33,126 nt of DNA from Pseudomonadota bacterium (GTDB lineage Bacteria > Pseudomonadota > Alphaproteobacteria > Acetobacterales > Acetobacteraceae). The position numbers and the translations under genes are program-made. The number at the start of each line of letters is the position of its first letter. Within the stretch, counting starts at the first letter, position 1. The notes under the pieces were generated by a model that saw only the letters and a program-made list of their open reading frames with translations, searched no databases and was not told where the DNA came from. Where the stretch lies: NCBI GenBank assembly GCA_021805565.1, contig JAJZFA010000031.1:1-33126 (forward strand). The letters run 5' to 3'. Below are positions 6,066 to 33,126 of this stretch, piece after piece.

Positions 6066-6982
6066 AGTTCGATCTCCATTCCGTCATAGCCCACGTTCCA
6101 GCCGGCTGCTTCTGCTTCGGCCCGTTCGGGCGAATCGTCCAGCAAAACCGGGTTGGAGTTATTGATGTGGAGCAAAATCTTTCGCCCGACCCGGATTTTT
6201 TTGAACGCTTCGATCGTGCCGTCCGAACCGCTTACGCTCATGTGGCCCATCCGCATTCCGGTTTTGCTGCCGGCGCCCGCGCGTATCATCTCATCGTCGG
6301 TCCATAACGTGCCGTCGAAGAATACCGCGTCTGCCCCATCGAGGCGCCGGGCGAGGCCGGGGGTCATGCGCGCGCAGCCTGGAATGAAAAATAGCCGGCG
6401 GCTGCCGCTATCGATAACCGCACCCACCGTCTGGTCGCCCTCGACAATGGCAGGTGCGGCCGACCCTTCTTCCAAATAAAGCGGAACCTTGCCGGGAACC
6501 GGGAACAGCGTCGCCGACAATCCGCTAAATGTGCCATCGGGCAGGTTCAGACGAGCCGGTGTGCCAACCGAAACGGTTTGTCGGGCAACCACGTCCCGCG
6601 CCAGCACCTCGAACACCGGATTGGCGTTCAGCACGGCATGAATCGACTCGGTTGCATAAACCGTGAGCGGCTGGCGTTCGCGGAGTGTCAGTAGGCCGGC
6701 GATGGCATCGACATCGCCCCCGGTCAGGACCACGCCGGCAATAGGGGAAGACCGCAATCCAAATTTCGGATGCAGACATGGGGTGGATTCGATTTGCTGT
6801 CGCAGATCGGGAGATGCGTTCAGCAGAAACCAATTTTCGCCATCTGCGCTGACCGCAAGGGATGCCTGCGTTCGGGCCAATGCACGGCGGTCGCCCGCCC
6901 TGGACCGGCGACAGCCCTCGGCATTGGAATTCCATTGTGGAAATCCGCCACCGGCGGCGGCGCCAAGGATACGCGCCTTCAT
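6062..6982 (-). CDS. pqqB: PqqB, metallo-beta-lactamase-fold PQQ synthesis protein
   Basis: PqqB is thought to hydroxylate the tyrosine ring of the released Glu-Tyr intermediate. The 306-residue sequence starts with MKARILGAAAGGGFPQWN, typical of the family, and contains LTLRERQPL (about 98-106), FFDGTLWTDDEM (221-232), MGHMSVSGSDGT (245-256) and HINNSNPVL (272-280). The stretch that often reads D-x-D-H in relatives is GGDVDAIAG here (89-96), so that histidine is replaced by alanine. The ATG at 6982 lies 49 bases after the pqqA stop, beyond a strong hairpin at 7001-7024. The stop overlaps the pqqC start by four bases. Confidence 0.96.
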   Translation of the reverse strand: MKARILGAAAGGGFPQWNSNAEGCRRSRAGDRRALARTQASLAVSADGENWFLLNASPDLRQQIESTPCLHPKFGLRSSPIAGVVLTGGDVDAIAGLLTLRERQPLTVYATESIHAVLNANPVFEVLARDVVARQTVSVGTPARLNLPDGTFSGLSATLFPVPGKVPLYLEEGSAAPAIVEGDQTVGAVIDSGSRRLFFIPGCARMTPGLARRLDGADAVFFDGTLWTDDEMIRAGAGSKTGMRMGHMSVSGSDGTIEAFKKIRVGRKILLHINNSNPVLLDDSPERAEAEAAGWNVGYDGMEIEL

Positions 6983-19506: not shown

Positions 19507-21477
19507 ATGGGCGCCGAATCCACGTTGCATCTCACCCGCGAGGCAGCGATCCGGGAGGCTGAAATCCTGGAGCGATCGGTATCGCCGACGAACCGCATGG
19601 CCGATGCGATCCGGGCGCTGGCGATCGATGCGGCGGACCCTGGCGATCCGGTCGTGCCGGTGGGCATGGCAGACCTCGCGACCGTGCTGTGGACGCGCTT
19701 TCATAAATTCGATTCCGCCGATCCGCGCTGGCCCGACCGGGACCGGTTCGTTCTGTCCGCCGGTCACGGATATTTACTGCTGTATGCGCTGATCCATCTC
19801 ACCGGCCATGACGGCATGACAATCGACGATATCCGCACTGTGCGGGCGTTGCATTCGCCGGTCGCCGGCCATCCTGAATATGGCGCCCATCCGGCGATCG
19901 AGGCGACGACGGGGCCGATGGGCCAGGGGCTTGCGACCGCCGTCGGCCTGGCCATCGCCGAACGCAATATGGCGGCCCGCTTCGGCAAATCGCTGGTGGA
20001 TCACCGAACCTGGGTTATCGCCTCGGAAGATGACCTGATGGAGGGTATCGGGCAGGAGGCGGCGGCACTTGCCGGACAACTGGCGCTGTCGAAGCTGACG
20101 GTACTGTATAGCGCCGAATCGATACCCGCCGGCGGCGATAGCGCGGTGCCGGGTTCCGACAGCGTATTGAAGTGCTTTGCCGCCCATGGTTGGGCGACAC
20201 GGCAGGCCGACGATCGCGACCCGGCCGGAATCGCCGCGGCATTGTCGTTCGCCGTGCGATCGAAGAAGCCCACATTGATCGCGTGCCGGTCGCCCTCGGC
20301 CCTCGCCCCGCTCGCTTCAAAGGCGGATATGGACTGGTGCGAACCGCCGTTCGTCATTCCGGCGGATTTACAGGAGCGCTGGCGTGCGGCCGGCAACCGG
20401 GGTGCATCTGCCCGCCGGGCCTGGTTGAAACGCCTGACCCGGCATGCCCAGCGCGGCGAGTTTGAGCGGGTTGTGGCCGGTCGCCTGCCCGACAACTGGC
20501 ACGAGGTTCTGGCAGGCTTGAAGCAGGACATCGCCGACACCCGGCCGAAACGCGCCAGCCAGGACTCCAGCCAGATTTGCCTCGATGCCTTCATTGCGGT
20601 CGCGCCGGAACTGATCGGCGGAGTCGCCGGCCTGACCGGGTTCGATGCCGTCCAGGGCAGGGGCGTGGTTCCGGTTTCCGCCACCGGCTATGGTGGCCGC
20701 TCCATTCAGTTCGGTCCTCGCGAACATGCCATGGCCGCCGCCGCCAACGGCATGGCGCTGCATGGCGGCATTATCCCCTTCATCGGCACGTCCGCGATTT
20801 GCAGCGACTATCTGCGGCCCGCTTTGCGGCTGACGGCGATCATGCACCAGCGGGCGATCTATGTTCTGACCCATGATTGGATCGGCCTGGGCGAACGCGG
20901 ACCCGCGTATCAGCCAGCCGAACAACTCGCCAGCCTGCGGGCCATGCCGAACCTGCACGTCTTCCGCCCCGCCGATGCGATGGAAACCGCCGAATCCTGG
21001 GACCTCGCGATGCGGCGGACGGACGGACCGAGCATTTTGGCGCTGTCGCGGCAGGAACTGCCGGCGTGGCGAACGGATACGGCGGACAGCCGGACGGCGC
21101 GCGGCGGGTACGTTTTGGCCGAAGCCGACGGCCCGCGCCAGGCGACGATCGTTGCCACCGGGTCGGAAGTCCCGATCGCCATGGCGGCTCGGGAGAAGCT
21201 GGCGGGCGACAATATCGCCGTCGCAGTCGTATCGCTGCCGTGCTGGGAACTGTTCGCGCTCCAGGATGAAGCCTATCGCGCCGAGGTTTTGGGCGGTGCG
21301 CCGCGTGTGGGGATCGAGGCCGCCGGAGCGTTCGGATGGGCGCAATGGCTGGGCCCGGATGGCACATTCATCGGCATGACGGGCTTTGGCGTATCCGGTC
21401 CTTGTTCGGACCTGTATGCGTATTTCGGCATCACCGCCGAAGCGGTGGTCGCCGCGGTGACCCGCCGGCTGGGGTAA
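19507..21477 (+). CDS. tkt: Transketolase-like protein with a degenerate active site
   Basis: The 656-residue protein has the full transketolase layout: an N-terminal thiamine-diphosphate domain, a pyrimidine domain (SIQFGPREHAMAAAANGMAL) and a C-terminal domain (ATIVATGSEVPIAM). Compared with recalled E. coli TktA, key residues differ. His26 is Asp47. The metal ligands Asp155 and Asn185 are Glu174 and Glu204 (SEDDLMEG, YSAESI). His261 has no counterpart. Asp381 of GGSADL is Gly (GGVAGL). Asp469 and His473 are Arg464 and Tyr468 (GERGPAYQP). His66, His100, Ile187, Glu411, His461 and Arg520 are kept. The frame is intact and the fold residues look conserved, so it is more likely a changed or non-catalytic relative than decay. 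The ATG at 19507 has GAGGAG upstream. A structured repeat begins right after the stop, and gap follows 155 bases on. Confidence 0.85.
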   Translation: MGAESTLHLTREAAIREAEILERSVSPTNRMADAIRALAIDAADPGDPVVPVGMADLATVLWTRFHKFDSADPRWPDRDRFVLSAGHGYLLLYALIHLTGHDGMTIDDIRTVRALHSPVAGHPEYGAHPAIEATTGPMGQGLATAVGLAIAERNMAARFGKSLVDHRTWVIASEDDLMEGIGQEAAALAGQLALSKLTVLYSAESIPAGGDSAVPGSDSVLKCFAAHGWATRQADDRDPAGIAAALSFAVRSKKPTLIACRSPSALAPLASKADMDWCEPPFVIPADLQERWRAAGNRGASARRAWLKRLTRHAQRGEFERVVAGRLPDNWHEVLAGLKQDIADTRPKRASQDSSQICLDAFIAVAPELIGGVAGLTGFDAVQGRGVVPVSATGYGGRSIQFGPREHAMAAAANGMALHGGIIPFIGTSAICSDYLRPALRLTAIMHQRAIYVLTHDWIGLGERGPAYQPAEQLASLRAMPNLHVFRPADAMETAESWDLAMRRTDGPSILALSRQELPAWRTDTADSRTARGGYVLAEADGPRQATIVATGSEVPIAMAAREKLAGDNIAVAVVSLPCWELFALQDEAYRAEVLGGAPRVGIEAAGAFGWAQWLGPDGTFIGMTGFGVSGPCSDLYAYFGITAEAVVAAVTRRLG

Positions 21478-21522
21478 GGCGACGCTGGCAAATAAGTGCG
21501 TCAGCACGCCAGCAAAGTTGCC
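21478..21522 (+). repeat. Structured palindromic repeat, copy 1
   Basis: The repeat starts on the base after the transketolase stop codon. Outer stem GGCGAC (21478-21483) pairs with GTTGCC (21517-21522) with one G-T wobble. Middle stem GCTGGC (21484-21489) pairs with GCCAGC (21508-21513). AAATAA (21490-21495) is bulged, the inner hairpin is GTGC-GTCA-GCAC (21496-21507), and AAA (21514-21516) is bulged on the other side. A tail with CAA and TAAGC follows, as in copies 4 and 5. The rest of the gap before gap holds only the ribosome binding site GGAAGGA. Confidence 0.85.
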
Positions 21523-21632
21523 GCGCAATCCCTAAGCGCGCGCTTGTGCGGGGCCGGGCCGTTGATTTATCTCAATGACTGTGCCGATAAGCAGACACCT
21601 GTTTCTGGTAAGCCTTGGAAGGAAAGCAAACA

Positions 21633-22646
21633 ATGGCCGTGAAGGTCGCGATCAATGGATTCGGACGTATCGGGCGCCTGGTGCTGCGCGCCATCGTCGA
21701 AAGCGGCCGGGAGGACGTTGTTCCCGTGGCGATCAACGATTTGGGCAGTGTCGAGGCGAACGCGCACCTGTTCGCCTATGACAGCGTGCATGGTCGTTTT
21801 CCCGGCCAGATCGAGGTGTCCGGCGACACCATTACAATCCGCCACAACGGCAAGGTGTACGGGCCGCTGAAAGTGTCGGCCGAACGCGACCCGACGAAAG
21901 TGCCGTATCAGGGTGTGGATGTGGCGCTGGAATGCACCGGCATTTTCGCCAGCAAGGCAAAGGCGTCCGCGCTGTTGACCGCCGGAGCGCGCAAGGTGCT
22001 GATCTCCGCCCCGGCGGATGAGGTCGATGCGACGATCGTTTATGGCGTGAATCACAAGACGATCACCAGGGATATGACGGTGATCTCCAACGCGTCCTGC
22101 ACCACCAACTGCCTGGCGCCGATGGCGAAGGTGCTGCATGAACGTTTCGGCATTCTACGCGGCTATATGGTGACCATCCACGCCTATACCGGCGACCAGA
22201 ACACCGTCGATACGCTGCATAAGGATCTGCACCGGGCGCGGGCGGCGGCTGTGTCGGCGATCCCAACCTCGACAGGTGCCGCCAAGGCCGTGGGGCTGGT
22301 ATTACCGGAACTGAAGGGCAAGCTGGATGGCACCGCCATCCGGATACCGACTCCGAATGTGTCGCTGGTGTCGCTGGACGTGAATTTGGCGAAGGCGGCG
22401 ACGAAGGAGGAGATTAACGCCGCGATGCAGGATGCCGCGAAGGGCGAGCTGGCCGGGATTTTGGACTATAACAAGGCACCGCTGGTCAGCATCGATTTCA
22501 ACCATAATCCGGCGTCCTGCACCTTCGACGCCACCCAGACGGCCGTGGTTGACGGTGCGCTGGCCAGAGTCATGGGATGGTACGACAATGAATGGGGCTT
22601 CTCTAACCGGATGTCTGACACCGCCGCGTTGATGGGGCGGTTGTAG
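21633..22646 (+). CDS. gap: Glyceraldehyde-3-phosphate dehydrogenase
   Basis: This NAD(P)-dependent enzyme interconverts glyceraldehyde 3-phosphate and 1,3-bisphosphoglycerate in glycolysis, gluconeogenesis and the Calvin cycle. The 337-residue sequence has the dinucleotide-binding loop NGFGRIG (8-14) and the catalytic Cys156 in SNASCTTNCLAP, with HAYTGDQNTVDTLHKDLHRA and WYDNEWGFSNRM downstream, all typical. Six earlier codons are open, but the ATG at 21633 gives MAVKVAINGFGRIG and has GGAAGGA about nine bases upstream. It follows the transketolase-like gene and precedes glpX, so the three probably act on sugar phosphates together. A 12-bp hairpin lies after the stop. Confidence 0.97.
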   Translation: MAVKVAINGFGRIGRLVLRAIVESGREDVVPVAINDLGSVEANAHLFAYDSVHGRFPGQIEVSGDTITIRHNGKVYGPLKVSAERDPTKVPYQGVDVALECTGIFASKAKASALLTAGARKVLISAPADEVDATIVYGVNHKTITRDMTVISNASCTTNCLAPMAKVLHERFGILRGYMVTIHAYTGDQNTVDTLHKDLHRARAAAVSAIPTSTGAAKAVGLVLPELKGKLDGTAIRIPTPNVSLVSLDVNLAKAATKEEINAAMQDAAKGELAGILDYNKAPLVSIDFNHNPASCTFDATQTAVVDGALARVMGWYDNEWGFSNRMSDTAALMGRL

Positions 22647-22668
22647 CATCGGCTGGCTTGAATTTGGC

Positions 22669-22700
22669 CGATCCGGGGCGTTCGCTGTCGCCCCGGATCG
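22669..22700 (+). terminator. Perfect 12-bp hairpin after gap
   Basis: CGATCCGGGGCG (22669-22680) and CGCCCCGGATCG (22689-22700) form a perfect 12-bp stem with an eight-base loop, 22 bases after the gap stop. It is a strong terminator or 3'-end stabiliser candidate without a T-tract. The remaining 244 bases before glpX hold no recognised feature, apart from the glpX ribosome binding site AAGGAAA. Confidence 0.6.
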
Positions 22701-22944
22701 TGAATTGGCTTGAGGCGCCGGCGTTGCCGTCACGCCACCGCCGCATCGCCATCGGTCCACCGGAGATCGGTTTCGTGTGTGTGGAACCCGACCGCCAGTC
22801 GCGGATCGTTCGCCGCGCCAGCCAGTTCTGTGATCCAACGAAGCCTCACATGAGCCAGCCGTCTCCGCGAGCAAACCCTGCCCACCGCCCCGGTTCGTGC
22901 TAAACCGCTCGGGACTCGCACCCCGCCCGACAAAAGGAAACCCC

Positions 22945-23940
22945 ATGGCCGCCCACAAGAAGCCGGAACCCGGCACGATGACAGACCGCAATCTGGCGCT
23001 GGAACTGGTCCGCGTCACCGAAGCCGCCGCGCTGGCGGCCTCGCGCTGGATCGGCCTCGGCAAAAAGAACGAAGCCGACGGCGCCGCGGTGGAAGCCATG
23101 CGCAAGGCATTCGATGCCGTGGGCATCGACGGCACCGTGGTCATCGGGGAAGGCGAAATGGACGAAGCCCCGATGCTGTTCATCGGCGAGAAAGTCGGCG
23201 CCGGCGGCCCAAGGATGGACATCGCCGTCGATCCGCTGGAAGGCACCACGCTGACCGCCAAGGCCGGTCCCAACGCGATGGCGACACTGGCCCTGGCCGA
23301 GAACGGCAATTTTCTCCACGCCCCCGACATTTACATGGACAAAATCGCCGTCGGCGGCGGCCTGCCGGCCGGCGTGGTGACCCTGGACGACGCGGTGGCC
23401 GTCAATCTGCGGAATCTGGCACGCGCCAAAAAATGCGAAATCTCCGATCTGGTCGCCTGCATCCTCGATCGCGACCGGCATAAGGATCTGATCGCCCATT
23501 GCCGCGAGGCCGGTGCGCGCGTCATGCTGATCACCGACGGCGACGTGGCCGGCGCCATCGCCACCGCGTTACCGGACTCGGAAATCGATATCTATCTGGG
23601 GTCCGGCGGCGCGCCCGAAGGCGTGCTGTCGGCGGCGGCGCTGCGCTGCGTCGGCGGGCAGATGCAAGGTCGGCTGCTGTACGAATCGGACGATCAGATC
23701 GAACGTGTCCGCGCCATGGGTCACGCCGATCCCAGGCGCTGCTTCTCGGTTGAGGAAATGGCCAGGGGCGACGTGATGTTCGCCGCGACCGGCGTGACAT
23801 CCGGCGCCATGCTGCGGGGCGTCAAGCGCAGCCCGCACGGGGCGACCACGCATTCGATCGTGATGCGCAGCCACTCCGGCACGGTGCGGTATATCGAGGC
23901 ACATCATAACTTTGCACAAAAGACCTGGACACCGACCTAG
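22945..23940 (+). CDS. glpX: Fructose-1,6-bisphosphatase, class II
   Basis: GlpX hydrolyses fructose 1,6-bisphosphate in gluconeogenesis; some relatives also act on sedoheptulose 1,7-bisphosphate in the Calvin cycle. The 331-residue sequence carries the class II signatures: KNEADGAAVEAMR (41-53), VIGEGEMDEAPML (66-78) and the metal-binding DPLEGT (96-101), with ITDGDVAGAI and GSGGAPEGVLSAAAL further on. The frame opens 16 codons earlier, but the ATG at 22945 with AAGGAAA upstream is preferred. Its last base is the first base of the recJ GTG start, so glpX and recJ are coupled. This pairing is recurrent in alphaproteobacteria. Confidence 0.97.
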   Translation: MAAHKKPEPGTMTDRNLALELVRVTEAAALAASRWIGLGKKNEADGAAVEAMRKAFDAVGIDGTVVIGEGEMDEAPMLFIGEKVGAGGPRMDIAVDPLEGTTLTAKAGPNAMATLALAENGNFLHAPDIYMDKIAVGGGLPAGVVTLDDAVAVNLRNLARAKKCEISDLVACILDRDRHKDLIAHCREAGARVMLITDGDVAGAIATALPDSEIDIYLGSGGAPEGVLSAAALRCVGGQMQGRLLYESDDQIERVRAMGHADPRRCFSVEEMARGDVMFAATGVTSGAMLRGVKRSPHGATTHSIVMRSHSGTVRYIEAHHNFAQKTWTPT

Positions 23941-25712
23941 TGGGCGAATGCGTCCTCGGCGTTACCAGCAGCCTGTCCGGACGGCGCTGGCTTTGGCGTT
24001 CCGGTGAGGAACGGGTCGCGGCTGGCATCGCGCAAAAACTCGGCCTGCCAGAGATCGTTGGGCGGTTGTTGTCGGCCCGGAATATCGGCATTGGCGATGC
24101 GGCCACGTTCCTGGAACCCACGCTGCGGGCGCTGCTGCCGGACCCGTCGGCCATGACCGACATGGACGCGGCGGCCGAACGATTGGCGGATGCGATCCGG
24201 CGGGGCGAAACGGTCGCGGTCTATGGCGATTACGACGTGGACGGTGCATGCAGCGCGGCGCTGATGGTGGGGTTTCTGCGGGGGCTGGGATGTCCGGTGC
24301 TGCATCACGTGCCGGATCGGATCAAGGAAGGCTACGGCCCGAACGCGCCGGCTCTGCTGTCGCTGACCCAGCGTGGCGCGAGCCTGATCGTGTGCGTCGA
24401 TTGCGGCACCGCCGCCGCGGCCGAACTGGCCGCGGTCGCCGGGGTGGCGGACGTGGCGGTGTTGGACCATCACAAGGCGGAAGGTCCGCCGCCGGCCATT
24501 TTGGCCACGGTCAACCCGAACCGGCTGGACGACACGTCCGGCCTTGGCATGCTGTGCGCGGCCGGGGTGGCGTTTCTGACCGCCATCGCGACGGTGCGGG
24601 CGTTGCGCCGCCTGGGCTTCTTCGCCGCGCGCGCCGAACCCGATCTGATGGCGCTGCTCGATCTGGTTGCGCTGGCGACCGTATGCGACGTGATGCCCCT
24701 GACCGGCGTGAACCGGGCGTTTGTGTGCCAGGGATTAAAGGTGATGGCTCGGCGGTCGCGGCCGGGCATCGCGGCCCTGCTGGACGTGACCCAGGCCCGC
24801 GACAAGCTCAACGCCGCCACCTGCGGCTACGCGCTGGGCCCCAGGATCAACGCCGGCGGCCGCATCAGCGAGGCCGATCTCGGGTTGCGCCTGCTGCTGA
24901 CCGAGGACCGGATCGAGGCGCTGGCACTGGCCGAAACGCTGGAAGCGGTTAACCGCACGCGCCAGGACGTGGAGGCGGGCATCATGGAAGCGGCGATGTT
25001 CGCCGCTGAAACCCAGGTCGCCGCCGGACGCGCGGCGTTGCTGGTCACGGGGCAGGGGTGGCATCCCGGCGTGGTGGGCATCGTGGCCGGCCGGATCAAG
25101 GAACGTTTCAACCGGCCCGCCTGCGTGGCCGGATTCAACGACGGTCTGGGCAAAGGCTCCGGCCGTTCGGTTCCCGGAGTCGATCTCGGATCGGCCGTGA
25201 TCGCCGCTCGGCAGGCCGGCTTGCTCGTCACGGGCGGCGGTCACGCGATGGCGGCCGGATTTTCGCTGCTACCGGAACGGTTGGCCGATTTCCATGCCTT
25301 TCTGGAAGACCGGTTATCGGCGGCCTCCGCCATGCCGCGGGCGGCCGACCTTATTGTCGAGGGCACGCTGGCGGTGTCCGGCGCCACGACCGAGGTCGCC
25401 CGGCACCTGGAACGGCTGGCGCCGTTCGGTTCGGGTAACGAGGAGCCGACCTTGGTGCTCAATCGTGCCCGCGTGGTGCGCGCTGACCGGGTGGGGCGCG
25501 AGGCGGGCTCGATCCGGGCGTTCGTGGAAGGGGAGGGTGGCGGGCCCAGATTGAAGACAATGATGTTCCGAGCGCGGGAGGGTGCCTTGGCGGATGCTTT
25601 GATGGCGCGGGCCAACGGCGTGCCGCTGCATCTGGCGGGCCATCTGCGGGCGGAGGAATGGAACGGATCGGTCAACCCGACGTTCATCGTTTCGGACGCG
25701 GCGGTGGCCTGA
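23940..25712 (+). CDS. recJ: Single-stranded-DNA exonuclease RecJ
   Basis: RecJ degrades single-stranded DNA 5' to 3' in recombination and repair. The 590-residue protein has the DHH phosphoesterase motifs DYDVDG (97-102), CVDCGT (152-157) and LDHHKAEG (175-182). These are followed by the DHHA1 region (GWHPGVVGIVAGRIKERF, GKGSGRSVPGVDL, GGGHAMAAGFS) and an OB-like C-terminus. Length is normal. The GTG at 23940 overlaps the glpX stop by one base, so translation probably depends on glpX. No stop or frameshift is seen. Confidence 0.96.
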   Translation: MGECVLGVTSSLSGRRWLWRSGEERVAAGIAQKLGLPEIVGRLLSARNIGIGDAATFLEPTLRALLPDPSAMTDMDAAAERLADAIRRGETVAVYGDYDVDGACSAALMVGFLRGLGCPVLHHVPDRIKEGYGPNAPALLSLTQRGASLIVCVDCGTAAAAELAAVAGVADVAVLDHHKAEGPPPAILATVNPNRLDDTSGLGMLCAAGVAFLTAIATVRALRRLGFFAARAEPDLMALLDLVALATVCDVMPLTGVNRAFVCQGLKVMARRSRPGIAALLDVTQARDKLNAATCGYALGPRINAGGRISEADLGLRLLLTEDRIEALALAETLEAVNRTRQDVEAGIMEAAMFAAETQVAAGRAALLVTGQGWHPGVVGIVAGRIKERFNRPACVAGFNDGLGKGSGRSVPGVDLGSAVIAARQAGLLVTGGGHAMAAGFSLLPERLADFHAFLEDRLSAASAMPRAADLIVEGTLAVSGATTEVARHLERLAPFGSGNEEPTLVLNRARVVRADRVGREAGSIRAFVEGEGGGPRLKTMMFRAREGALADALMARANGVPLHLAGHLRAEEWNGSVNPTFIVSDAAVA

Positions 25713-25849
25713 TGTTGCCGGCGCGGGCGTGGCCATCGCGCACGCCAACCGGTTTGGCCCCGGTGCCACCCGATCGTCCCGAATAGGCTTGCCCGATTCC
25801 AGGCTTGTGGCGTAGGGAACGGCGCCAGTCAGCCGGAGAATCCTTGGCC

Positions 25850-26818
25850 ATGCGGCGCCGTATCTTTTTGTTTTTTCTCATAATCGCCACGATTGTCTGG
25901 CAGGCTTCCGCCTGGGCAGGCGGCATCGTCTTCGTCGTGAATTCCGCGGGCGCATCGATCAGCGTGATCGACATGACGACGCAAAAGGAAGTCCGCCGCA
26001 TCCCCAGCCTGCGAGAACCGCACCACTTGGTGCTCAGCCCGGACGGGCGCAGCCTGCTGGTCGGCGACACCGCCGGCAATCAGATGCTGTTTCTCGATCC
26101 CAACACGGGCGACGTGCAGAAACGCATGCCGGTCGCCGATCCGTATCAACTGGGGTTCAGCCCGGACGGCAAATTCCTGACGGTGAACGGCCTCGCGCGC
26201 AATCAGGTGGACGTGTACGACGCGGCCACGATGAAGCTGGTAAAGCGTTTTCCGGTGGTCGCGACACCCAGCCATCTGGATTATTCGCCCGATTCATCGA
26301 CGGTGTTCGTTACGTTGCAGGACAGCGACAAGCTCGCGGCCTTCGATCTGCGCACCATGACCGAAAAATGGACCATGCCGGTCGGCAAAACCCCCGCCGG
26401 CGTGCTGTGGCTGAACGGCAAGGTCCTGGTTGCCGATATGGGCACCGATTATATCGCCGTGGTCGATCCCGCCGACGGCAAGGTGCTGGAACACGTTCAG
26501 ACCGGCAAGGGCGCGCATCAGTTGTTCCTGTCGCCCGATCGCAAAATTTTGTGGGTCAACAACCGCGCCGGGGGTACCACCGTTTCGCTGGACGCCGCGA
26601 CGCTGAAGCCGATCCGGTCCTATGCCATCCCCGGCGGGCCGGACGACATGGTGTTCGCACCGAATGGCAAAATCTGGATCACCCGCCGCTGGGCGGAGAA
26701 GGTGGCCGTGCTCGATCCTGCTGCCGGGTCGTATGAAACGATCGATGTCGGCCGCTCGCCGCACGGCATTTTGCTGAACGCGAGGGCGCCGTCGCCCACG
26801 GTGCTGTCCAGCCGCTGA
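25850..26818 (+). CDS. Exported YncE-like beta-propeller protein
   Basis: The 322-residue protein has a signal peptide (MRRRIFLFFLIIATIVWQAS, cleaved near AWAG) and then repeated blades of the YVTN/YncE type. Examples are GGIVFVVNSAGASISVIDM, HHLVLSPDGRSLLVGDTAGN, QLGFSPDGKFLTVNG and HQLFLSPDRKILWVNNRAGG. It should be a periplasmic seven-bladed propeller binding a protein or small ligand; no enzyme motif is visible. The ATG at 25850 is preferred over the open frame from 25805 because it opens the signal peptide and has GGAGAA nine bases upstream. Its stop overlaps the start of the fatty-acid hydroxylase-like gene (TGATG), so the two form a coupled pair. Confidence 0.88.
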   Translation: MRRRIFLFFLIIATIVWQASAWAGGIVFVVNSAGASISVIDMTTQKEVRRIPSLREPHHLVLSPDGRSLLVGDTAGNQMLFLDPNTGDVQKRMPVADPYQLGFSPDGKFLTVNGLARNQVDVYDAATMKLVKRFPVVATPSHLDYSPDSSTVFVTLQDSDKLAAFDLRTMTEKWTMPVGKTPAGVLWLNGKVLVADMGTDYIAVVDPADGKVLEHVQTGKGAHQLFLSPDRKILWVNNRAGGTTVSLDAATLKPIRSYAIPGGPDDMVFAPNGKIWITRRWAEKVAVLDPAAGSYETIDVGRSPHGILLNARAPSPTVLSSR

Positions 26819-27765
26819 TGCCCGACCCGTTCGACATCGCCGCCGGATGGCTACAGGAAAACCTGCTGGTTCCGGTGCTGTATTGGTCCGGTCTGATGAA
26901 CTGGGAAGATGTATCGTACGGATGGGCACTGTTCGCGATGTACGGTGCCGCGCAGGTCGCGGTTACCTTCGCCGTATGCCTGCCATTGGAACGCTGGCGC
27001 CCGGTGGAGCGCTGGCCCGACAACAACGCGGTCTGGATCGATGTCGCTTACACAATCCTGTCCCGTGTCGGAATCCTGCCGCTTGTCACCTACGTCATGT
27101 TTTATCGGGCGCAAGTCGCAATCGGCGGCTGGATGGCCGACCGAGGCCTTGTTACGCCGACGCTTGAGGGCCTGTTCCCCGTCCTGCTGGGCCGGCAGGT
27201 TATCGTTTTTGTTCTGTACGCTATGATACTGGACTTCGCCGAATACTGGCGCCACCGCCTGTCTCATCAGTTCCGCTGGTGGTGGGCGCTGCATTCGCTG
27301 CATCACGCGCAGCGGCAAATGACCTTCTGGTCGGACGACCGTAACCATCTGCTGGACGACGTCATCTCATTTGTCTGGTTCGGGGCCATCGCGTTGGCAA
27401 TCGGCGTGCCGCCCTTGCAGTTTCCTTTGTTGGTGCTGGTGCTGCGTTTTCTGGAATCGCTGTCGCACGCCAATGTGCGGCTGTCGTTCGGGTGGCTGGG
27501 AGATCGGCTGCTGATTTCGCCGCGATTCCACCGGGCGCATCACGGTATCCGCGCGGCGGGCGGCCGAAGCTGCAATTACGGCGCGGTGCTGCCATGGTGG
27601 GATATGCTGTTCGGAACTGCCGATTTTGCTCGCGACTATGTTCCGACCGGCGATCCCTCGGGTGAGGAGGCACTGGCGACTGGCACCTATTGGCAGCAGC
27701 AAATGGCCGGACTGCGCCGGTTTATCCGGACATTCGGACGCAGACCGGTGCCGCACCGGCCATGA
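26818..27765 (+). CDS. Sterol desaturase / fatty acid hydroxylase family protein
   Basis: The 315-residue membrane protein has several hydrophobic segments and the three histidine clusters of the family: His146-x3-His150 (HRLSH), His159-x2-His162-His163 (HSLHH) and His238-x2-His241-His242 (HRAHH). His217 (ESLSHANVR) is also typical. These should bind two irons and hydroxylate or desaturate a lipid; the substrate (fatty acid, hopanoid, carotenoid or sterol) cannot be told. The ATG at 26818 shares a base with the stop of the beta-propeller gene, so the enzyme is made together with that exported protein. A DUF169 gene follows 72 bases later. Confidence 0.9.
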   Translation: MPDPFDIAAGWLQENLLVPVLYWSGLMNWEDVSYGWALFAMYGAAQVAVTFAVCLPLERWRPVERWPDNNAVWIDVAYTILSRVGILPLVTYVMFYRAQVAIGGWMADRGLVTPTLEGLFPVLLGRQVIVFVLYAMILDFAEYWRHRLSHQFRWWWALHSLHHAQRQMTFWSDDRNHLLDDVISFVWFGAIALAIGVPPLQFPLLVLVLRFLESLSHANVRLSFGWLGDRLLISPRFHRAHHGIRAAGGRSCNYGAVLPWWDMLFGTADFARDYVPTGDPSGEEALATGTYWQQQMAGLRRFIRTFGRRPVPHRP

Positions 27766-27837
27766 CGTCCTAAACGCCCGGTCCGGCTTTGCGTCCGGCG
27801 CGCGATATGCCAGCATGCCGCGAGAAGGAAGCAAGCC

Positions 27838-28644
27838 ATGAACGACATGCCAACGACGCAGGATATGGATGGCAAGACCGTCGCCGATCTTGGGGAACAA
27901 CTGAATCAGTTGCTGCGCCTGCGCACCTTCCCCATCGGCATGAAGCTGTTCCAGGATGTGGCGGAGATGGAAGCCGTGCCCGGCCTGCGCCGCCCGGCCA
28001 AAGGGAAAACCTATTCCACCTGCCAGTTGGTCACTCAATCCCGCATGGCCGGCTTCACGCTTGGCATCACCACGGAAAACGTGCCGCCATTTTCCAGTTG
28101 CAGCAGCGTGATCGGGCTGGATGCCCCAGGCGACATTTATACCTCCGGCCGCAAGATGGAGGGCGTTTGGTTCGAAAATCGCGATGCCGCCGCCGCGCAT
28201 CAGGCGCAAATGCCACGTGTGGCACCGGGAACGTACCATGGGCTGGCGATTTCTCCGTTGCGAACCGGCCGGCTCAGCCCGCCGGATGTGTGCCTGTTTT
28301 ATGGCAATCCCGCACAAATGATTCTGTTCATCAATGGGCTGCAATGGCGCAATTATCAGCGTTACGATTTCAGCATCACCGGCGAGAGTGCCTGCGCCGA
28401 TAGCTGGGGCAGCGCACTGAAGAACAAGAAGGTCAGCCTGTCGATACCGTGCTATGCGGAACGCCGTTACGGCGGCGTGGCGGATGACGAGATGCTGATG
28501 GCGTGCCCGCCGGCCGATTTGCAGCGAGCGGTGACGGGATTGCAGGGTCTGGCGAAGGCGGGGCTGCGGTATCCTATCATGCCGTTCGGCCCGCAGGCCG
28601 AACCGGGCGAGGGAATGGCCAAGAGTTATGCCGGGAAAAGCTGA
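27838..28644 (+). CDS. DUF169 family protein
   Basis: The 268-residue protein belongs to DUF169 (COG2043), which has no established function. Visible family features are RTFPIGMKLFQDVAEM near residues 30-45, YSTCQLVTQSRMAGFTLGIT with a conserved Cys, PPFSSCSSVIGL, VCLFYGNPAQM and SIPCYAERRYGG. Several cysteines lie in these blocks and could bind metal or a cofactor. No signal peptide or membrane segment is seen, so it should be cytoplasmic. The ATG at 27838 follows AAGGAA at eight bases. It may be transcribed with the beta-propeller and hydroxylase genes, since the gap is short, but it has its own good ribosome binding site. Confidence 0.85.
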   Translation: MNDMPTTQDMDGKTVADLGEQLNQLLRLRTFPIGMKLFQDVAEMEAVPGLRRPAKGKTYSTCQLVTQSRMAGFTLGITTENVPPFSSCSSVIGLDAPGDIYTSGRKMEGVWFENRDAAAAHQAQMPRVAPGTYHGLAISPLRTGRLSPPDVCLFYGNPAQMILFINGLQWRNYQRYDFSITGESACADSWGSALKNKKVSLSIPCYAERRYGGVADDEMLMACPPADLQRAVTGLQGLAKAGLRYPIMPFGPQAEPGEGMAKSYAGKS

Positions 28645-28945
28645 ACAGCGCGTGTGTCCGCCGATGCCAGACCAGGATATGTGCCGGTGCCCCCAACGCC
28701 AACGAACCGGCAGGCTTCCCGTGGTTGGACCGGGCGTGCTTTCGCCGCGATAAATCGCCGCGATCCGCTGCCGGAATACTGCGGGCGGCAGTGAACCACT
28801 GTCCGCTGCGTCCCACACCGTACACATATCCGCTGCATCCCGGACAATCCGGGCAGCGTGTGTATGCAGATAACCGAGCCCTGTGTCATTTGCCCGCCGA
28901 CCGGCTGTAAGGCAGCAGCAAGTCGCAAAGGTAAAAGGGGCAAAA

Positions 28946-28968
28946 CCGTGGGCACGGGTGCATTTTTG
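28946..28968 (+). terminator. Weak intrinsic terminator candidate
   Basis: CCGTG (28946-28950) and CACGG (28953-28957) form a short GC-rich stem with a two-base gap, followed by GTGCATTTTTGT. It lies about 300 bases after the DUF169 stop. The stem is short, so the call is weak. Confidence 0.3.
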
Positions 28969-29127
28969 TAGAAAGTTTTACGCCGGATTTTGCTAGCCAC
29001 GACACAGCGACACTCGCAAGAGACCAGAACGGGACAGGAGCCGAACGGGGCGCAGGAATAACGGCATACCCGCCGCCACGGCCCCGGGCGATCGTTGTCG
29101 GACACGCCCTTTGTCGTTCCTTGGGCA

Positions 29128-29171
29128 GGCAGCTTTATTGGCGCACTCGCACCGTTATTGCCAATGCTGCC
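29128..29171 (-). repeat. Structured palindromic repeat, copy 2 (divergent)
   Basis: This copy is in reverse orientation to copy 1. Outer stem GGCAGC (29128-29133) pairs perfectly with GCTGCC (29166-29171), and middle stem ATTGGC (29137-29142) pairs with GCCAAT (29160-29165). TTT (29134-29136) and GTTATT (29154-29159) are the two bulges. The inner part (29143-29153) has diverged to a weaker GCG/CGC hairpin. The stems differ in sequence from copy 1 but keep pairing. It ends 50 bases before the metallo-hydrolase gene. Confidence 0.7.
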
Positions 29172-29221
29172 CTGACGCCTGCGCAGTATGCGGGCGCGAT
29201 GGGTTTTGCTAGCTACTGGGG

Positions 29222-30265
29222 ATGCAACCGACTCATCCGTCTAAACTGACGTTCCCCATCGCCGTCGCGCCGCAATTCGGTTCGGTGACCGATATCGCGC
29301 CTGGTATTCGCTGGCTGCGCCTGCCGCTGCCGTACCGCCTGGATCATGTGAACATCTATCTGCTGGAGAACGAGGGCGGCTGGACCGCGCTGGACTCCGG
29401 TCTCGGCGACGATGTGTGCAAGACGGCATGGCAGACGGCGCTGGCCGGCCCGCTGAAGGGACAACGCCTGAAATCGCTGATCGTATCGCATTTTCATCCC
29501 GATCATGTCGGGCTGGCCGGCTGGCTGTGCCGGCAGTACGACCTGGAACTGACAATGCCCCGCCCGGAATATCTTCACAGCCTGGTGCTGCAATTCGCCC
29601 CGGCCAACTACGGCGAGGACGTTTATCGCCCGTTCTACCGGCGCCATGGCCTGTCCGCCGAGGCGACCGAGATCGTGCTGAGCCGGGGGCACGAATATCT
29701 GCATCGCACGACCGGCGTTCCCGCATCGTATCGCCGGATCCGTCATGGCGACAGATTGGCGGTCGGCGCGCGCGAATTTCAGGTCATGACGGGCGGCGGA
29801 CACTCAATCGAACAGGCGATGCTGTATCGTCCCGAAGAACGTCTGTTCCTGGCCGCCGATCAGGTTATCGCTCGGATTTCGCCGAATGTGAGCGTGCATC
29901 CGATGGAGCCGGACCTGGATGCGTTGGGCATCTATCTGGCGTCGCTGCGCGCGATCCGGGACTCCGTGGCACCCGATGTGCTGGTGCTGCCCGGTCATGG
30001 CCTGCCGTTTCATGGCCTGCACGACCGCGTGGACGAACTGATCGCGCATCATGCGCTGCGGTGCGGCGAGATCGCGGCCGGCTGCCGGGACACGCCGTTG
30101 TCGGTGGCCGAGATCGTGCCGGTGCTGTTCACCCGCCCGCTGGACGCACATCAAACCGGTTTCGCGTTCGGGGAGGTCCTGGCCCACGTCAATCACATGC
30201 TGGGCCGGGGCGAGTTGCGGCTCGAGACCGATCAAGGCGGGGTGGATCGTTACCGGACAGTATAG
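29222..30265 (+). CDS. Metallo-beta-lactamase-fold hydrolase
   Basis: The 347-residue protein has the metal-binding motif HFHPDH: His90, His92, Asp94 and His95 in SHFHPDHVGLAG. Further metal-ligand regions are GGGHSIEQAMLY, LFLAADQVI and LVLPGHGLPFHG. A C-terminal helical extension resembles LACTB2-type proteins, some of which are nucleases or thioesterases, so the reaction is open. No signal peptide is seen. The ATG at 29222 gives the family N-terminus, but its ribosome binding site is poor (CTGGGG directly upstream), so the start is less sure. It converges on the MFS gene, with repeat copy 3 in the 99-base gap between the stops. Confidence 0.88.
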   Translation: MQPTHPSKLTFPIAVAPQFGSVTDIAPGIRWLRLPLPYRLDHVNIYLLENEGGWTALDSGLGDDVCKTAWQTALAGPLKGQRLKSLIVSHFHPDHVGLAGWLCRQYDLELTMPRPEYLHSLVLQFAPANYGEDVYRPFYRRHGLSAEATEIVLSRGHEYLHRTTGVPASYRRIRHGDRLAVGAREFQVMTGGGHSIEQAMLYRPEERLFLAADQVIARISPNVSVHPMEPDLDALGIYLASLRAIRDSVAPDVLVLPGHGLPFHGLHDRVDELIAHHALRCGEIAAGCRDTPLSVAEIVPVLFTRPLDAHQTGFAFGEVLAHVNHMLGRGELRLETDQGGVDRYRTV

Positions 30266-30319
30266 CGGCCATTGCCGCCGGATCGATTGCCGATGCCGGT
30301 CCAAGCCTTTGTTTGAGCG

Positions 30320-30363
30320 GGCAGCTTTATCGGCGTGCTGACGCACGTATCGCCGATGCCGCC
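30320..30363 (-). repeat. Structured palindromic repeat, copy 3
   Basis: On the minus strand this copy begins one base after the TAA of the MFS gene, much as copy 1 follows the transketolase stop. Middle stem ATCGGC (30329-30334) pairs with GCCGAT (30352-30357). The inner hairpin GTGC-TGAC-GCAC (30335-30346) is the exact reverse complement of that in copies 1, 4 and 5. The outer stem GGCAGC/GCCGCC (30320-30325/30358-30363) has one A-C mismatch. TTT and GTATC are the bulges. The sequence beyond (30301-30319) still resembles the tail of copies 4 and 5. Confidence 0.8.
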
Positions 30364-30364
30364 C

Positions 30365-31567
30365 TTAATCGGTCTCTCTGGCCGGGCGGGTTTCCGGCAT
30401 GGCCAGCCAGACCGCGATAACACCGGCCAGACCGGTGGCGGCCAGTACCAGGAACGCTGTCGTCGTGCCCGCGTCATCGGCGATGCCACCGGACATCGTG
30501 GTACTGATGGCGGCCCCCAGATACAGCGCCAGCCCCAATATGCCCATGCACAGGTTGAAATGCGCGGTTCCCAGCGTCAGGTCGGCGGCCAGCAGCGGCA
30601 GCAGTACGCCGAACACCGCCGCGCTGACGCCGCTGACGGCCTGTCCGATCACCAGCGGCCAGGACCCAGGCAGCACCGCCAGTAGCAGTCCGCGCAACGG
30701 CAACGCCCCCCAACCGATCAGCATGAGACGCTTGCGGCCGATTTTTTGTGCGGTTCGGCCGACCCAGGGCGATAACAGCGCCACCACACATTGGGGGACG
30801 ACGATGCAGGCGGCGATGATCAGGTTGGCGAACTGTCCCGCGCGCATGGTGACCGCCGACGCGGCCAGCGGCAGCATCGCGGCGTTCGATAAATGGAACA
30901 ACATCACGCACAGGGCCGCGATCAGCAGCCGCCGGTCGGCCAGCAGCCGCTTCAGGCCGTCCACGTCCAAAGCTCGGCTGGTTGTTTGCGACCGGCTGTG
31001 CGGCCCTGCTCCGATTTTCCACAGCATCGCCAATGCCGGCACGCACAGCGCCGCGGTCAGCAGAAATACGAAGCGCGACGAAAAATACGCCCCGCTGGCG
31101 CCCATGACCGCGGCGGCCAGACCGTTGCCGATCGATCCATGGCGTGCGTTGCGCCCCAGCCGCTCCCCCAGCGCGGCATGTCCAGCGAGTTGCAGGCTGA
31201 TCGCCGCGATTGCCGGGGTGATCACGCAACTGGCGAAGCCATGCAGAATCTGTGCGGTCAGCACCGGCAACGGATGCGGCAAAAACGCCAGCAGCAGCGC
31301 CGCGACGAAGACGGCGGCCAGCGCCCCGGTTGCCGCGATACGCTTGTTACGCATCGAATCCACCAGCACACCGGCCGGCAACTGGCCAATCAACGATGTC
31401 ATCGTGCCGAGTGTCAGCGCGAAGCCGATGTCGATCTGGGTCCATTTATGCGATGTCAGATAGACGGCGACGAACGGTCCGAAGCCCGTTTGCACGTCGG
31501 CGACGAAGAAATTCAGCAAATCCAGTGCGCGGTTCGGACCGATGCGCGGATGGACGGCGCGTGACAT
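30365..31567 (-). CDS. Major facilitator superfamily transporter
   Basis: The 400-residue protein has about twelve hydrophobic membrane segments in two halves with a central polar loop near residues 195-220 (GPHSRSQTTSRALDVDGLKR), as in MFS permeases. The first half carries FVADVQTGFGPFVAVYLTSH and the loop DSMRNKR, corresponding to the family's segment 2-3 motif; SPWVGRTAQKIGRKR is the counterpart in the second half. It is an inner-membrane secondary transporter of unknown substrate. The frame extends 15 codons before the ATG at 31567, but this start fits the N-terminal pattern; the ribosome binding site is weak. It starts seven bases after the PRC-barrel gene, so the two are likely co-transcribed. 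Confidence 0.87.
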   Translation of the reverse strand: MSRAVHPRIGPNRALDLLNFFVADVQTGFGPFVAVYLTSHKWTQIDIGFALTLGTMTSLIGQLPAGVLVDSMRNKRIAATGALAAVFVAALLLAFLPHPLPVLTAQILHGFASCVITPAIAAISLQLAGHAALGERLGRNARHGSIGNGLAAAVMGASGAYFSSRFVFLLTAALCVPALAMLWKIGAGPHSRSQTTSRALDVDGLKRLLADRRLLIAALCVMLFHLSNAAMLPLAASAVTMRAGQFANLIIAACIVVPQCVVALLSPWVGRTAQKIGRKRLMLIGWGALPLRGLLLAVLPGSWPLVIGQAVSGVSAAVFGVLLPLLAADLTLGTAHFNLCMGILGLALYLGAAISTTMSGGIADDAGTTTAFLVLAATGLAGVIAVWLAMPETRPARETD

Positions 31568-31574
31568 CACCGGG

Positions 31575-32099
31575 TCAATGGCCGGCCGCGACGGAATCCG
31601 CCGGGGTGACAACGGATGCCGCTTTGTTGGGATCGAGGAACTCCGGGGCGGCCTTTATCTGGTCCGGCGTCATCGTCACGGTGATTTTGTGTTTGGTGTC
31701 GCCGGGGGTGAAGCGCAGCACGCTCCAATGCACCGCGATTTTGCGGTTACCGACGCCCATGAAGCCGCCGAAGTCGATGACGGCGGCTTGTGGCTGGCCG
31801 TTGGCATCGACCAGCACGTCCACCAGACGCCCGATTTCTTTCTTATCTGGATCGGTCACGGGTTGTCCCAGGATGGCTTCCGCCGTGTCGGGGGCCACCG
31901 ACTGAACCGCGCTTAAGGGTGGCGTTTGGACCGCGGCGGGCGGCTGCGCGGGGGGAACCTGCTCGAGCGACAGCGGTTGGACCGGAATTGCCGGCGGCGG
32001 GGCGTCGTTCGCCACGGGCGGCGGCGGGTTATCGGCCCGCGCCGATACGCCAGCCGCCACGCCAAGGATAGCCGCGGCCATTAGAGTCATTCGTTGCAT
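31575..32099 (-). CDS. Exported PRC-barrel domain protein
   Basis: The 174-residue protein has a signal peptide (MQRMTLMAAAILGVAAGVSA, cleaved near RAD) and a Pro-rich linker (about 24-70, with PPPP and PPAQPP). A PRC-barrel domain follows: ILGQPVTDPDKKEIGRLVDV, LVDANGQPQAAVIDFGG and KIAVHWSVLRF. Such proteins are periplasmic or surface-associated in alphaproteobacteria and often respond to stress; the function here is unknown. The frame opens earlier, but the ATG at 32099 starts the signal peptide and has GGGG upstream. Its stop lies seven bases before the MFS start. Confidence 0.87.
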   Translation of the reverse strand: MQRMTLMAAAILGVAAGVSARADNPPPPVANDAPPPAIPVQPLSLEQVPPAQPPAAVQTPPLSAVQSVAPDTAEAILGQPVTDPDKKEIGRLVDVLVDANGQPQAAVIDFGGFMGVGNRKIAVHWSVLRFTPGDTKHKITVTMTPDQIKAAPEFLDPNKAASVVTPADSVAAGH

Positions 32100-32256
32100 C
32101 CTGGCCCCCAACCAGTTGAATTGCCTATGCGCCGCGCGCACGGCGATCAAGCCGTCAGTGTCGATAGCACGATCATGTTACCGTGGCAGTGGTATCGGCG
32201 GCATACTGGCCAGCGATGCTTCCGAGGTCGTCTGGGCCGGCCGCCGGTGGCGCCCG

Positions 32257-32640
32257 TTAGCGACGCTGGATCAGTTCGATCGTGACATTTTCCGGTGCGG
32301 TTAAAAACGCGATCCGAACGCCCGGCCGGACGGTCGCGATGTCCATGGTGAACGTAACGCCTTGCGCCTTCAGTCTGGCGACCGCCGCTTCGATGTCTTC
32401 GACGGTCAGTCCGAAATGGTCCAACCCCAAATAAGGCGAAGACGGCGCGGCGGCGGCTTCTCCGGGCCTGACCTTGGCGATGAACACTTTCTGCCCGGCG
32501 AGATTGACATCGATACGAACCGAACCGTTGGGTTGCGGGGTTTTAACGATCTCGGCCCCCAGCTTGTCCTAGTACCAGGCCGCGGTGGCGTCCGGATCCA
32601 GCGAACGCAGGTGAATATGTTCCCAGGTGAACTGTGTCAT
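32257..32640 (-). pseudogene. Glyoxalase/VOC-family gene with in-frame amber stop
   Basis: The frame from the ATG at 32640 reads MTQFTWEHIHLRSLDPDATA then AWY, meets TAG at 32571-32569 (codon 24), and continues in the same frame with DKLGAEIVKTPQPNGSVRID, YLGLDHFGLTVEDIEAAVAR and VTIELIQRR to a stop at 32257. The total of about 127 codons is a normal single VOC domain, and His10 and the later Glu fit metal-ligand positions. The stop replaces one residue between WY and DKLG, where relatives have a charged or polar residue; GAG or AAG to TAG would need one change. A GTG at 32487 could restart a 76-residue piece, but that would lack the first metal ligand. Sequencing error, recent loss or readthrough are all possible. 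Confidence 0.82.
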
Positions 32641-32972
32641 GGTCGTCCCCGCGAGCCGGTTCCGCACGATACACGCATGGCCTGACCGGTCAGGCAAGGG
32701 CGCCTCCCAGGGCATGGGGTGGCGGACCTAAGGCAACGCTGGCAAATAAGTGCGTCAGCACGCCAGCAAAGTTGCCGTGCAAAACATAAGCTTAGGCAAC
32801 GCTGGCAAATAAGTGCGTCAGCACGCCAGCAAAGTTGCCGTGCAAAACATAAGCTTAGGGTAACTGCTCAACCCACCGCCTGACGGCGTTCATTTGCTGA
32901 CGGTGCGCGCCTGCCACCGTCTCTTAATATTAACTTGACACGGTCACGGGCGAGTCGAGTCTAAACGCGGGC
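32641..32972. other. 332-base intergenic region with tandem repeats
   Basis: This gap lies between the divergent VOC gene and the IS66 TnpC start. It holds the tandem repeat copies 4 and 5 (32731-32856). After them, 32857-32972 is probably the left end and leader of the IS66-type element. A TTGACA (32935-32940) lies there, but it is too close to the GTG start to be a clear promoter. No other gene is seen. Confidence 0.45.
32731..32856 (+). repeat. Tandem structured palindromic repeats, copies 4 and 5
   Basis: Two identical 63-base units lie head to tail. In each, outer stem GGCAAC/GTTGCC (32732-32737/32771-32776 and 32795-32800/32834-32839) and middle stem GCTGGC/GCCAGC (32738-32743/32762-32767 and 63 bases on) pair perfectly. 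AAATAA and AAA are bulged and GTGC-GTCA-GCAC is the inner hairpin. A tail GTGCAAAACATAAGCTTA joins the units. Copy 1 differs from these in only one base of the 45-base core. The perfect identity of the two units suggests a recent duplication. Confidence 0.9.
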
Positions 32973-33126
32973 GTGAACGCGCTCCCGAACCTCGACCATC
33001 TCAGCCACCCGGAGAAAGACGCGCTGATCCGCGCGCTGTGGGCGCAGGTCCAGTCCCTTGGGGGGCGGGTCGCCGAACTCGAGGCCAGGCTGAACGATCC
33101 GCCCAAGACCCCGGAGAATTCCTCCG
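32973..33126 (+). CDS. IS66-family transposase TnpC, N-terminal part
   Basis: The first 51 codons of a gene that runs off the right edge read LPNLDHLSHPEKDALIRALW, AQVQSLGGRVAELEARL and DPPKTPENSS. This is the typical N-terminus of IS66 TnpC, with a leucine-zipper-like helix followed by the PPKTPxNSS segment that precedes its zinc-binding region. The start is taken as the GTG at 32973, since the frame is closed by TAA at 32931 and no ATG is available; no clear ribosome binding site is seen. No tnpA or tnpB precedes it, so the element is of the tnpC-only type or has lost its first genes. Confidence 0.75.
   Translation, partial: MNALPNLDHLSHPEKDALIRALWAQVQSLGGRVAELEARLNDPPKTPENSS

What the first reader, a model, noticed from the sequence alone, without database searches (positions are those of the whole stretch)
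21478..32839. Structured palindromic repeat family with covarying stems (five copies)
The five copies are at 21478-21522, 29128-29171, 30320-30363, 32732-32776 and 32795-32839. All share one architecture: outer 6-bp stem, a three-base bulge (AAA or TTT by strand), middle 6-bp stem, a five- or six-base A-rich bulge and an inner hairpin region. The middle stem is GCTGGC/GCCAGC in copies 1, 4 and 5, ATTGGC/GCCAAT in copy 2 and ATCGGC/GCCGAT in copy 3, so changes on one side are matched on the other. The inner hairpin GTGC-GTCA-GCAC is identical in four copies. Paired change with conserved bulges points to selection on a folded RNA or single-stranded DNA. I do not recognise it as a named family; it might be a REP/MITE-like mobile element or a 3'-UTR motif.
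Basis: partly seen in the sequence, partly recalled or inferred. Interest (0 to 1): 0.82.

Follow-up and report, generated by a model that had tools for sequence, protein, structure and literature searches.

The report
Mobile two-hairpin intergenic repeat element
The repeated hairpin is half of a tiny parasitic DNA element, about 111 bases long, that has copied itself at least 150 times into this bacterium's genome, mostly between genes; it resembles a known but poorly understood kind of bacterial repeat and shows how such elements insert.

Summary
In detail: the five copies are where stated and four fold as drawn. They are one arm (hp1) of a ~111-bp two-arm element: hp1, an 18-nt CAAAACA-type linker, a second palindrome (hp2). 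The window's genome holds at least 150 hp1 copies; 9 of 102 sampled genera of the GTDB family, its own included, have matches, with compensatory changes in both arms. It moves: flanking triplets, mostly TNA, are identical in 32 of 47 single elements here and 30 of 31 in a relative, and window copy 1 has an empty site in four relatives. It is not a RAYT-linked REP. I read it as a non-autonomous element moved in trans by an unidentified enzyme making 3-bp staggered cuts, perhaps IS5-like. The closest described kind is CIR (~110 bp, two arms, linker, GANTC in a loop). Nine of 12 hp2 sequences compared from other genomes have GATTC at one fixed place; this genome's copies have lost it (1 of 47). 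New variant of a known kind; it would supply CIR's unknown target duplication if the kinship holds.

The parts
21475..21477 (+). left copy of the TAA target triplet of copy 1; also the stop codon of the transketolase ORF 19507-21477
21478..21522 (+). copy 1, arm hp1 (subfamily A)
21523..21532 (+). copy 1, remaining right end (hp2 internally deleted)
   Evidence: alignment with four relatives that lack the insert
21533..21535 (+). right copy of the TAA target triplet of copy 1
29128..29171 (-). copy 2, arm hp1 (subfamily B, inner hairpin decayed); left TNA = TCA on the minus strand at 29173-29175
30270..30319 (-). linker and decayed hp2 remnant of copy 3 (outer limit approximate)
   Evidence: minus strand reads CGCTCAAACAAAGGC and then a decayed arm
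30320..30363 (-). copy 3, arm hp1 (subfamily B)
30365..30367 (-). left TAA of copy 3, also the stop codon of the MFS transporter ORF 30365-31612 (-)
32732..32776 (+). copy 4, arm hp1 (subfamily A), first unit of a 63-bp tandem array; left TAA at 32729-32731
32777..32794 (+). linker GTGCAAAACATAAGC plus TTA
32795..32839 (+). copy 5, arm hp1 (subfamily A)
32840..32859 (+). linker after copy 5, ending in AGCTTAGG (32852-32859), the octamer duplicated by the insertion sequence that cuts the array
   Evidence: the same octamer follows the other end of the insertion sequence on contig C60, locus L002

Best explanation
The feature is one arm (hp1) of a non-autonomous mobile element of about 111 bp. 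Anatomy (shown): TNA | GG..hp1..CC | 15-nt linker with CAAAACA + TTA | GG..hp2..CC | TNA. hp1 has two stems, an AAA bulge on the 3' side, an A-rich bulge on the 5' side and usually a GTGC-GTCA-GCAC cap; hp2 has a 13-bp stem. The two ends are weak inverted repeats (GG...AATAA). Insertion occurs at TNA and duplicates it (shown by identical flanks and one empty site). Tandem copies (63-bp hp1+linker units, 114-bp whole units) and hp2 deletions follow (shown as structures; the mechanism is inferred). Inferred: a transposase acting in trans makes 3-bp staggered cuts, most likely a DDE enzyme of the IS5 type; the paired stems persist because the ends are recognised, or tolerated, as hairpins. Survival is mainly intergenic, sometimes exactly on TAA stop codons, where the duplication keeps the stop.
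For: At least 150 hp1 copies in the genome: all 150 candidates that were scored matched, of 6022 in the first look. Left and right triplets identical in 32 of 47 single elements; of the 38 with TNA on both sides 32 match, shuffled mean 18.2, 0 of 100,000 shuffles as high. In JANXTL01 (= G028: six contig lengths and the positions agree) 35 hp1 places were read; 4 run off a contig end, the other 31 all fit one fixed 111-bp pattern, and 30 of 31 have identical triplets (TAA 16, TTA 13, TAT 1), shuffled mean 14.7, 0 of 100,000; about seven of these lie beside a second repeat, so their triplets are not independent host sites. Empty site for window copy 1 in G010, G022, G025 (single TAA) and G020 (TAG). 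Both arms covary across genera: hp1 44 both-side cells against a shuffled mean of 10.9 (24 sequences); hp2 20 against 5.3 (14 sequences); RNAalifold finds the same folds unaided. Left/right end resemblance 94 of 180 letters against 46.7, 12 of 20,000 column shuffles as high (ten hand-picked elements). An IS5-family insertion sequence (DDE_Tnp_1, DUF4096) flanked by TTA exists in G028.
Against: No autonomous element with these ends was found among the DDE_Tnp_1/DUF4096 loci examined in four genomes, so the enzyme is a guess; the G028 IS5 element has different ends (GTGTCTGAC). Other transposase families were not searched, apart from Y1. The terminal inverted repeats are poor for a classical MITE. 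In G000, 15 of 47 singles do not show identical triplets (mutated or misread ends), 10 of them in subfamily B (8 of 18 identical there). In the empty-site alignment a 12-column gap starts about ten bases beyond the junction. Draft assemblies may hide longer autonomous copies at contig ends.
Confidence: 0.82

Rival explanations
1. REP/BIME element mobilised as single-stranded DNA by a RAYT (Y1 tyrosine transposase).
For: Small palindromic intergenic repeat with covarying stems and mostly kept bulges, many copies, tandem groups.
Against: No Y1_Tnp match in 5 of 6 other carriers, including G028 with 37 copies; the only Y1 match in G000 is IS200-like with no hp1 in the 10 kb around it. No GTAG tag. 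Variable triplets duplicated on both sides do not fit IS200/IS605-type insertion (recalled knowledge). These are drafts, so a missed gene is possible.
Confidence: 0.03
2. A structured RNA kept for its function (3'-UTR stabiliser, terminator or small RNA), whose copies are secondarily spread.
For: Covarying fold; few divergent sites (5 against 26 convergent) and 23:10 orientation towards the upstream gene's end in G000; in 16 of 50 copies with a left TAA it is the stop of a long open frame.
Against: No Rfam match; no U-run in the copies read; patchy presence (15 of 299 genomes); duplications with near-identical copies in one relative; among full singles, stop-codon insertions occur in both orientations (7 left, 4 right of 47 in G000; 4 and 3 of 31 in G028); the orientation bias is not evident in the 29 G028 sites (4 same, 2 opposite; 14 at locus edges).
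Confidence: 0.1
3. Simple amplification by slippage and homologous recombination, the TNA triplets being part of the repeat unit and not a duplication.
For: 63-bp and 114-bp tandem arrays exist, with TNA between units.
Against: Dispersed single copies with different triplets that match on both sides of otherwise near-identical elements and an empty site.
Confidence: 0.05

Closest known systems
CIR, Caulobacter CcrM-associated intergenic repeats (Chen and Shapiro 2003, not held; description from passages of the review PMC2229807)
   Same: About 110 bp; two inverted-repeat arms joined by a linker; intergenic; TA at the termini; GANTC at the terminal loop of one arm: here GATTC sits at the same offset of hp2 in 9 of the 12 sequences compared from genomes other than G000.
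   Different: G000's own copies lost GANTC (1 of 47). Sequence kinship with published CIR could not be tested. The review's table gives CIR's target duplication as '?'; here a 3-bp TNA duplication is seen.
Bru-RS and RIME repeats of Brucella and rhizobia
   Same: Intergenic repeats of Alphaproteobacteria; Bru-RS is listed with 103-105 bp and a conserved stem-loop in tables of PMC2267715 (passages read); RIME was seen only as reference titles (PMC1273637).
   Different: No sequences available for comparison. The six plasmid hits at E 3 (three Rhizobium, two Agrobacterium, one Terrarubrum) covered 18-35% of the query; in the five loci fetched the hp1 model scored at most 14 bits and no two-arm fold was seen.
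REP/BIME elements with RAYT (PMC2817692; GTAG and CGTC classes, PMC3733652; passages of both)
   Same: Small covarying palindromes, many copies, intergenic.
   Different: No RAYT found, no GTAG or CGTC terminal tag; 3-bp target duplication.
MITEs such as RUP, Correia/NEMIS, ERIC (PMC2229807, passages)
   Same: Non-autonomous, about 100-150 bp, target duplication, stable hairpins.
   Different: Those fold end to end with terminal inverted repeats and TA at the termini; this element has two separate arms and TNA.

Membership tests
CIR | about 110 bp long | tested here: met
   31 of 35 JANXTL01 places fit one fixed 111-bp pattern, the other 4 are cut by contig ends; aligned full copies in G000 about 111 bp
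CIR | two arms of inverted repeats joined by a linker | tested here: met
CIR | GANTC methylation site at the loop of one arm | tested here: not met
   1 of 47 full copies in the window's genome; met in 9 of 12 hp2 sequences of other genomes, plus GAGTC in one viral contig
CIR | intergenic location | tested here: met
   of 81 sites 64 lie between called genes, 3 inside, 10 at locus edges, 4 without gene calls (crude gene calls)
CIR | sequence relationship to published CIR1-CIR4 | not testable with these tools
   paper not held; no CIR sequence available
REP/RAYT | RAYT (Y1) transposase in the genome flanked by the repeat | tested here: not met
REP/RAYT | terminal GTAG or CGTC tag | tested here: not met
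   ends are TNA|GG..CC|TNA
IS5-type (IS1031-like) MITE | 3-bp TNA target duplication | tested here: met
   that TNA is typical of IS1031 is recalled, supported here by one IS5-family element with TTA flanks
IS5-type (IS1031-like) MITE | termini shared with an autonomous IS5-family element | tested here: inconclusive
   none among the loci examined; only PF01609 and PF13340, in four genomes, were searched
Rfam RNA families | match to a curated model | tested here: not met
   0 matches for the window, three G000 loci and four loci of relatives

The most novel reading that the evidence does not exclude
The ends are recognised as folded hairpins with specific bulges, not as linear inverted repeats, yet insertion makes a 3-bp duplication: a structure-guided transposition by a DDE-like enzyme. 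This would combine the hairpin recognition known from Y1 enzymes with staggered double-strand insertion, and would be the missing mobility mechanism of CIR-type repeats.
Probability: 0.12. Interest if true: 0.75.

Novelty: new variant of a known kind. Interest (0 to 1): 0.42.

Why it matters
Two-arm intergenic repeats of Alphaproteobacteria (CIR type) were described with target duplication and mobility unknown (PMC2229807, passages). Here a family of the same build in Acetobacteraceae shows the insertion footprint (TNA, 3 bp), an empty site, apparently recent spread in one relative, and loss of GANTC in a genome with at least 150 copies, which argues that the methylation site is not needed for spread. 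It gives a tractable system for finding the transposase.

Tried and rejected
RAYT/REP: rejected. Rfam family: no match at gathering or E up to 1 (four loci). Parent transposase: PF01609 and PF13340 loci of G000, G028, G021 and G015 scanned for ends with a TNA duplication; only L173 showed a convincing TNA-flanked IS5 element, with other ends. L125/L167 has IS5-like ends GGGCCTGTC but a TA duplication. Sequence kinship with rhizobial repeats: distant plasmid searches gave nothing at E 0.01; of the six hits at E 3 five loci were fetched (H2 was not), and they were not two-arm homologues (best model score 14 bits, in an annotated coding region). G-U against A-C deviations as a strand test: 38 against 20 cells, 13 against 8 types, not decisive. 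The weak match in another family of the class (G050, E 2.9e-4) was read as chance. The weakest matches (G071, G257) do not show the architecture when read, so 15 of 299 genomes and 9 of 102 genera are upper readings. An automatic end-finder misplaced several right ends and was replaced by the alignment-based reading.

Rows dropped: of 47 subfamily-A rows 14 array or array-flanked members and 4 without hp2 were left out; of 52 B rows 18 were kept, picked by eye as singles with a readable hp2; 9 of the 47 singles without TNA on both sides were left out of the shuffle test (none of them identical). A1 holds 64 unique hp1 sequences: 62 distinct ones from the 93 rows plus two window copies that the filter had missed. 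A2 holds 24 and A3 14 hand-picked representatives; REEB358 may be the same genome as one of the unnamed ones. Empty site: nine of the loci were looked at; three (G005, G029, G014) lacked the anchor and were not aligned, and G012 aligned in a different upstream context and is not counted.
Full report
OBSERVATION. A structural scan of the window finds the five copies at the stated coordinates with sixteen possible pairs each. At a looser score such shapes are common by chance (28 on the + strand against 15-22 in three random sequences); the recurrence of one sequence is what stands out. RNA folding gives the drawn structure for copies 1, 3 and 4 (copy 5 has the sequence of copy 4); copy 2 has lost its cap; the complementary strand of copy 4 folds nearly as well. 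Copies 1, 4 and 5 form one sequence type (A), copies 2 and 3 another (B).

THE REAL UNIT. The window lies in a draft genome of 4.49 Mb, 64 contigs. BLAST with the two types gives 48 and 55 places, and a covariance model of hp1 gives 150 matches out of 150 candidates scored, a lower bound. Reading the flanks shows that hp1 is often followed by an 18-nt linker containing CAAAACA and ending in CTTA, then a second palindrome hp2 that ends in CC before a TNA; in B copies hp2 is often decayed or missing. Arrays have 63-bp (hp1 plus linker) or 114-bp periods. In the window no copy is complete: copy 1 is hp1 plus 10 bp, copies 2 and 3 keep decayed second arms, copies 4 and 5 are the first part of an array.

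MOBILITY. Among 47 single elements with readable ends in G000, left and right triplets are identical in 32 (24 of 29 in A, 8 of 18 in B); among the 38 with TNA on both sides, 32 match against 18.2 expected, 0 of 100,000 shuffles. JANXTL01 (found) is G028: six contig lengths and the positions agree. Of its 35 hp1 places read, 4 run off contig ends; the other 31 fit one fixed 111-bp pattern and 30 have identical triplets, TAA, TTA and one TAT. About seven of these lie beside a second repeat. Window copy 1 sits between the transketolase stop codon and gap (GAPDH). In relatives G010, G022 and G025 the same junction has a single TAA and no insert, in G020 a TAG and no insert; taking 58 bp out of G000 closes the junction, with a 12-column gap about ten bases further on. 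G012 was in the alignment but its upstream context differs, so it is not counted; three more loci had no anchor.

WHERE IT SITS. After merging arrays, 81 sites in G000: 26 convergent, 23 codirectional with hp1 facing the upstream gene's end, 10 the other way (p 0.035), 5 divergent, 3 inside called genes, 10 at locus edges, 4 without gene calls; in G028 29 sites: 7 convergent, 4 same, 2 opposite, 1 divergent, 14 edge, 1 without calls (crude ORF-based gene calls). Of 50 copies with left TAA, 16 have it as the stop of an open frame of at least 100 codons. Among full singles this happens in either orientation (7 left, 4 right of 47 in G000; 4 and 3 of 31 in G028), against 115 of 2035 for TAA anywhere in the fetched G000 loci, which overlap and are rich in the element. 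I read this as survival at harmless sites.

FOLD. Within G000 most variation is the A/B split plus decay. Across genomes the case is stronger: 24 representatives of hp1 have 8 of 16 pairs with both-side changes (2 of 500 shuffles as high) and 44 such cells against 10.9 in shuffles, 0 of 500 as high; 14 representatives of hp2 have 8 of 13 pairs and 20 cells against 5.3, 0 of 500. RNAalifold predicts both folds from the alignments alone. Shuffles do not correct for shared ancestry, but slid controls fall to 0-7 cells for hp1 and 0-7 for hp2. The AAA bulge and the cap are largely kept; G132 and G310 have another cap.

DISTRIBUTION. In a relatives search 7 of the 33 same-genus genomes (G000 included) have hits: G000 at least 107, G028 37, G015 17, G021 7, G017 2, G007 1, G016 1. 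In 299 genomes drawn from the same GTDB family 15 have hits, in 9 of 102 genera, own genus included, the weakest of them doubtful. Two-arm copies were read in G015 and G021, G236, G232, G136 and G292 and G339. One IMG/VR contig carries a copy. Plasmid records give nothing convincing.

WHAT MOVES IT. No Y1 transposase match in G028, G015, G021, G016 and G017, one in G007, which speaks against a RAYT as far as these drafts go. A 3-bp duplication points to a DDE-type enzyme (general knowledge). The two ends resemble each other weakly but more than chance. No autonomous partner was found among PF01609 and PF13340 loci of four genomes; other DDE families were not searched.

COMPARISON. CIR (PMC2229807; passages read) is the closest described type. 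Of 12 hp2 sequences compared from other genomes, 9 hold GATTC at the same offset in the loop; G000's own copies have GANTC in 1 of 47. Because one defining feature fails in the window's genome and sequence kinship could not be tested, I do not file the window copies as CIR; they work and look like a CIR variant. No description of this family was seen in the listings of paper searches, nor in the passages read; most subscription papers are not in that library.

Noticed in passing
window 32852-33126; L002 (contig C60 end): An insertion sequence starting GTAACTGCTCAAC cuts the hp1 array after copy 5; its other end is on contig C60 with the same 8-bp octamer AGCTTAGG, so contigs C5 and C60 are very probably neighbours joined through this element. 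A 51-aa partial frame at 32973 weakly matches DUF6444 (E 7e-4, below cut-off); IS66 family is a guess from recall.
   Followed up: partly
L087, L091, L096, L101, L110, L111, L115, L117 (JANXTL01): A second two-arm repeat (GAGCGTGATCGCC arm, TCAAACAAAGGCTTA linker, GACCATGATCG arm ending in TAA) lies next to several copies; apparently a distant subfamily of the same architecture.
   Followed up: no
L063:-: Element with hp2 in flipped orientation, as if the palindrome had inverted.
   Followed up: no
L019, L042, L016: hp2 collapsed to CTTAGGGCATGGCCTAAG-like short palindromes, a likely deletion product.
   Followed up: no
L249 (IMGVR_UViG_3300009510_000288) about 6450-6565: A two-arm element with TAA on both sides on a contig classed as viral.
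   Followed up: partly
L173 1357-2288 (G028): Apparently complete IS5-family insertion sequence, 932 bp, ends GTGTCTGAC, flanked by TTA on both sides.
   Followed up: partly
window 3959-6982 (-): ORFs that look like PQQ biosynthesis genes (pqqE, pqqC, pqqB) by eye; names recalled, not tested.
   Followed up: no
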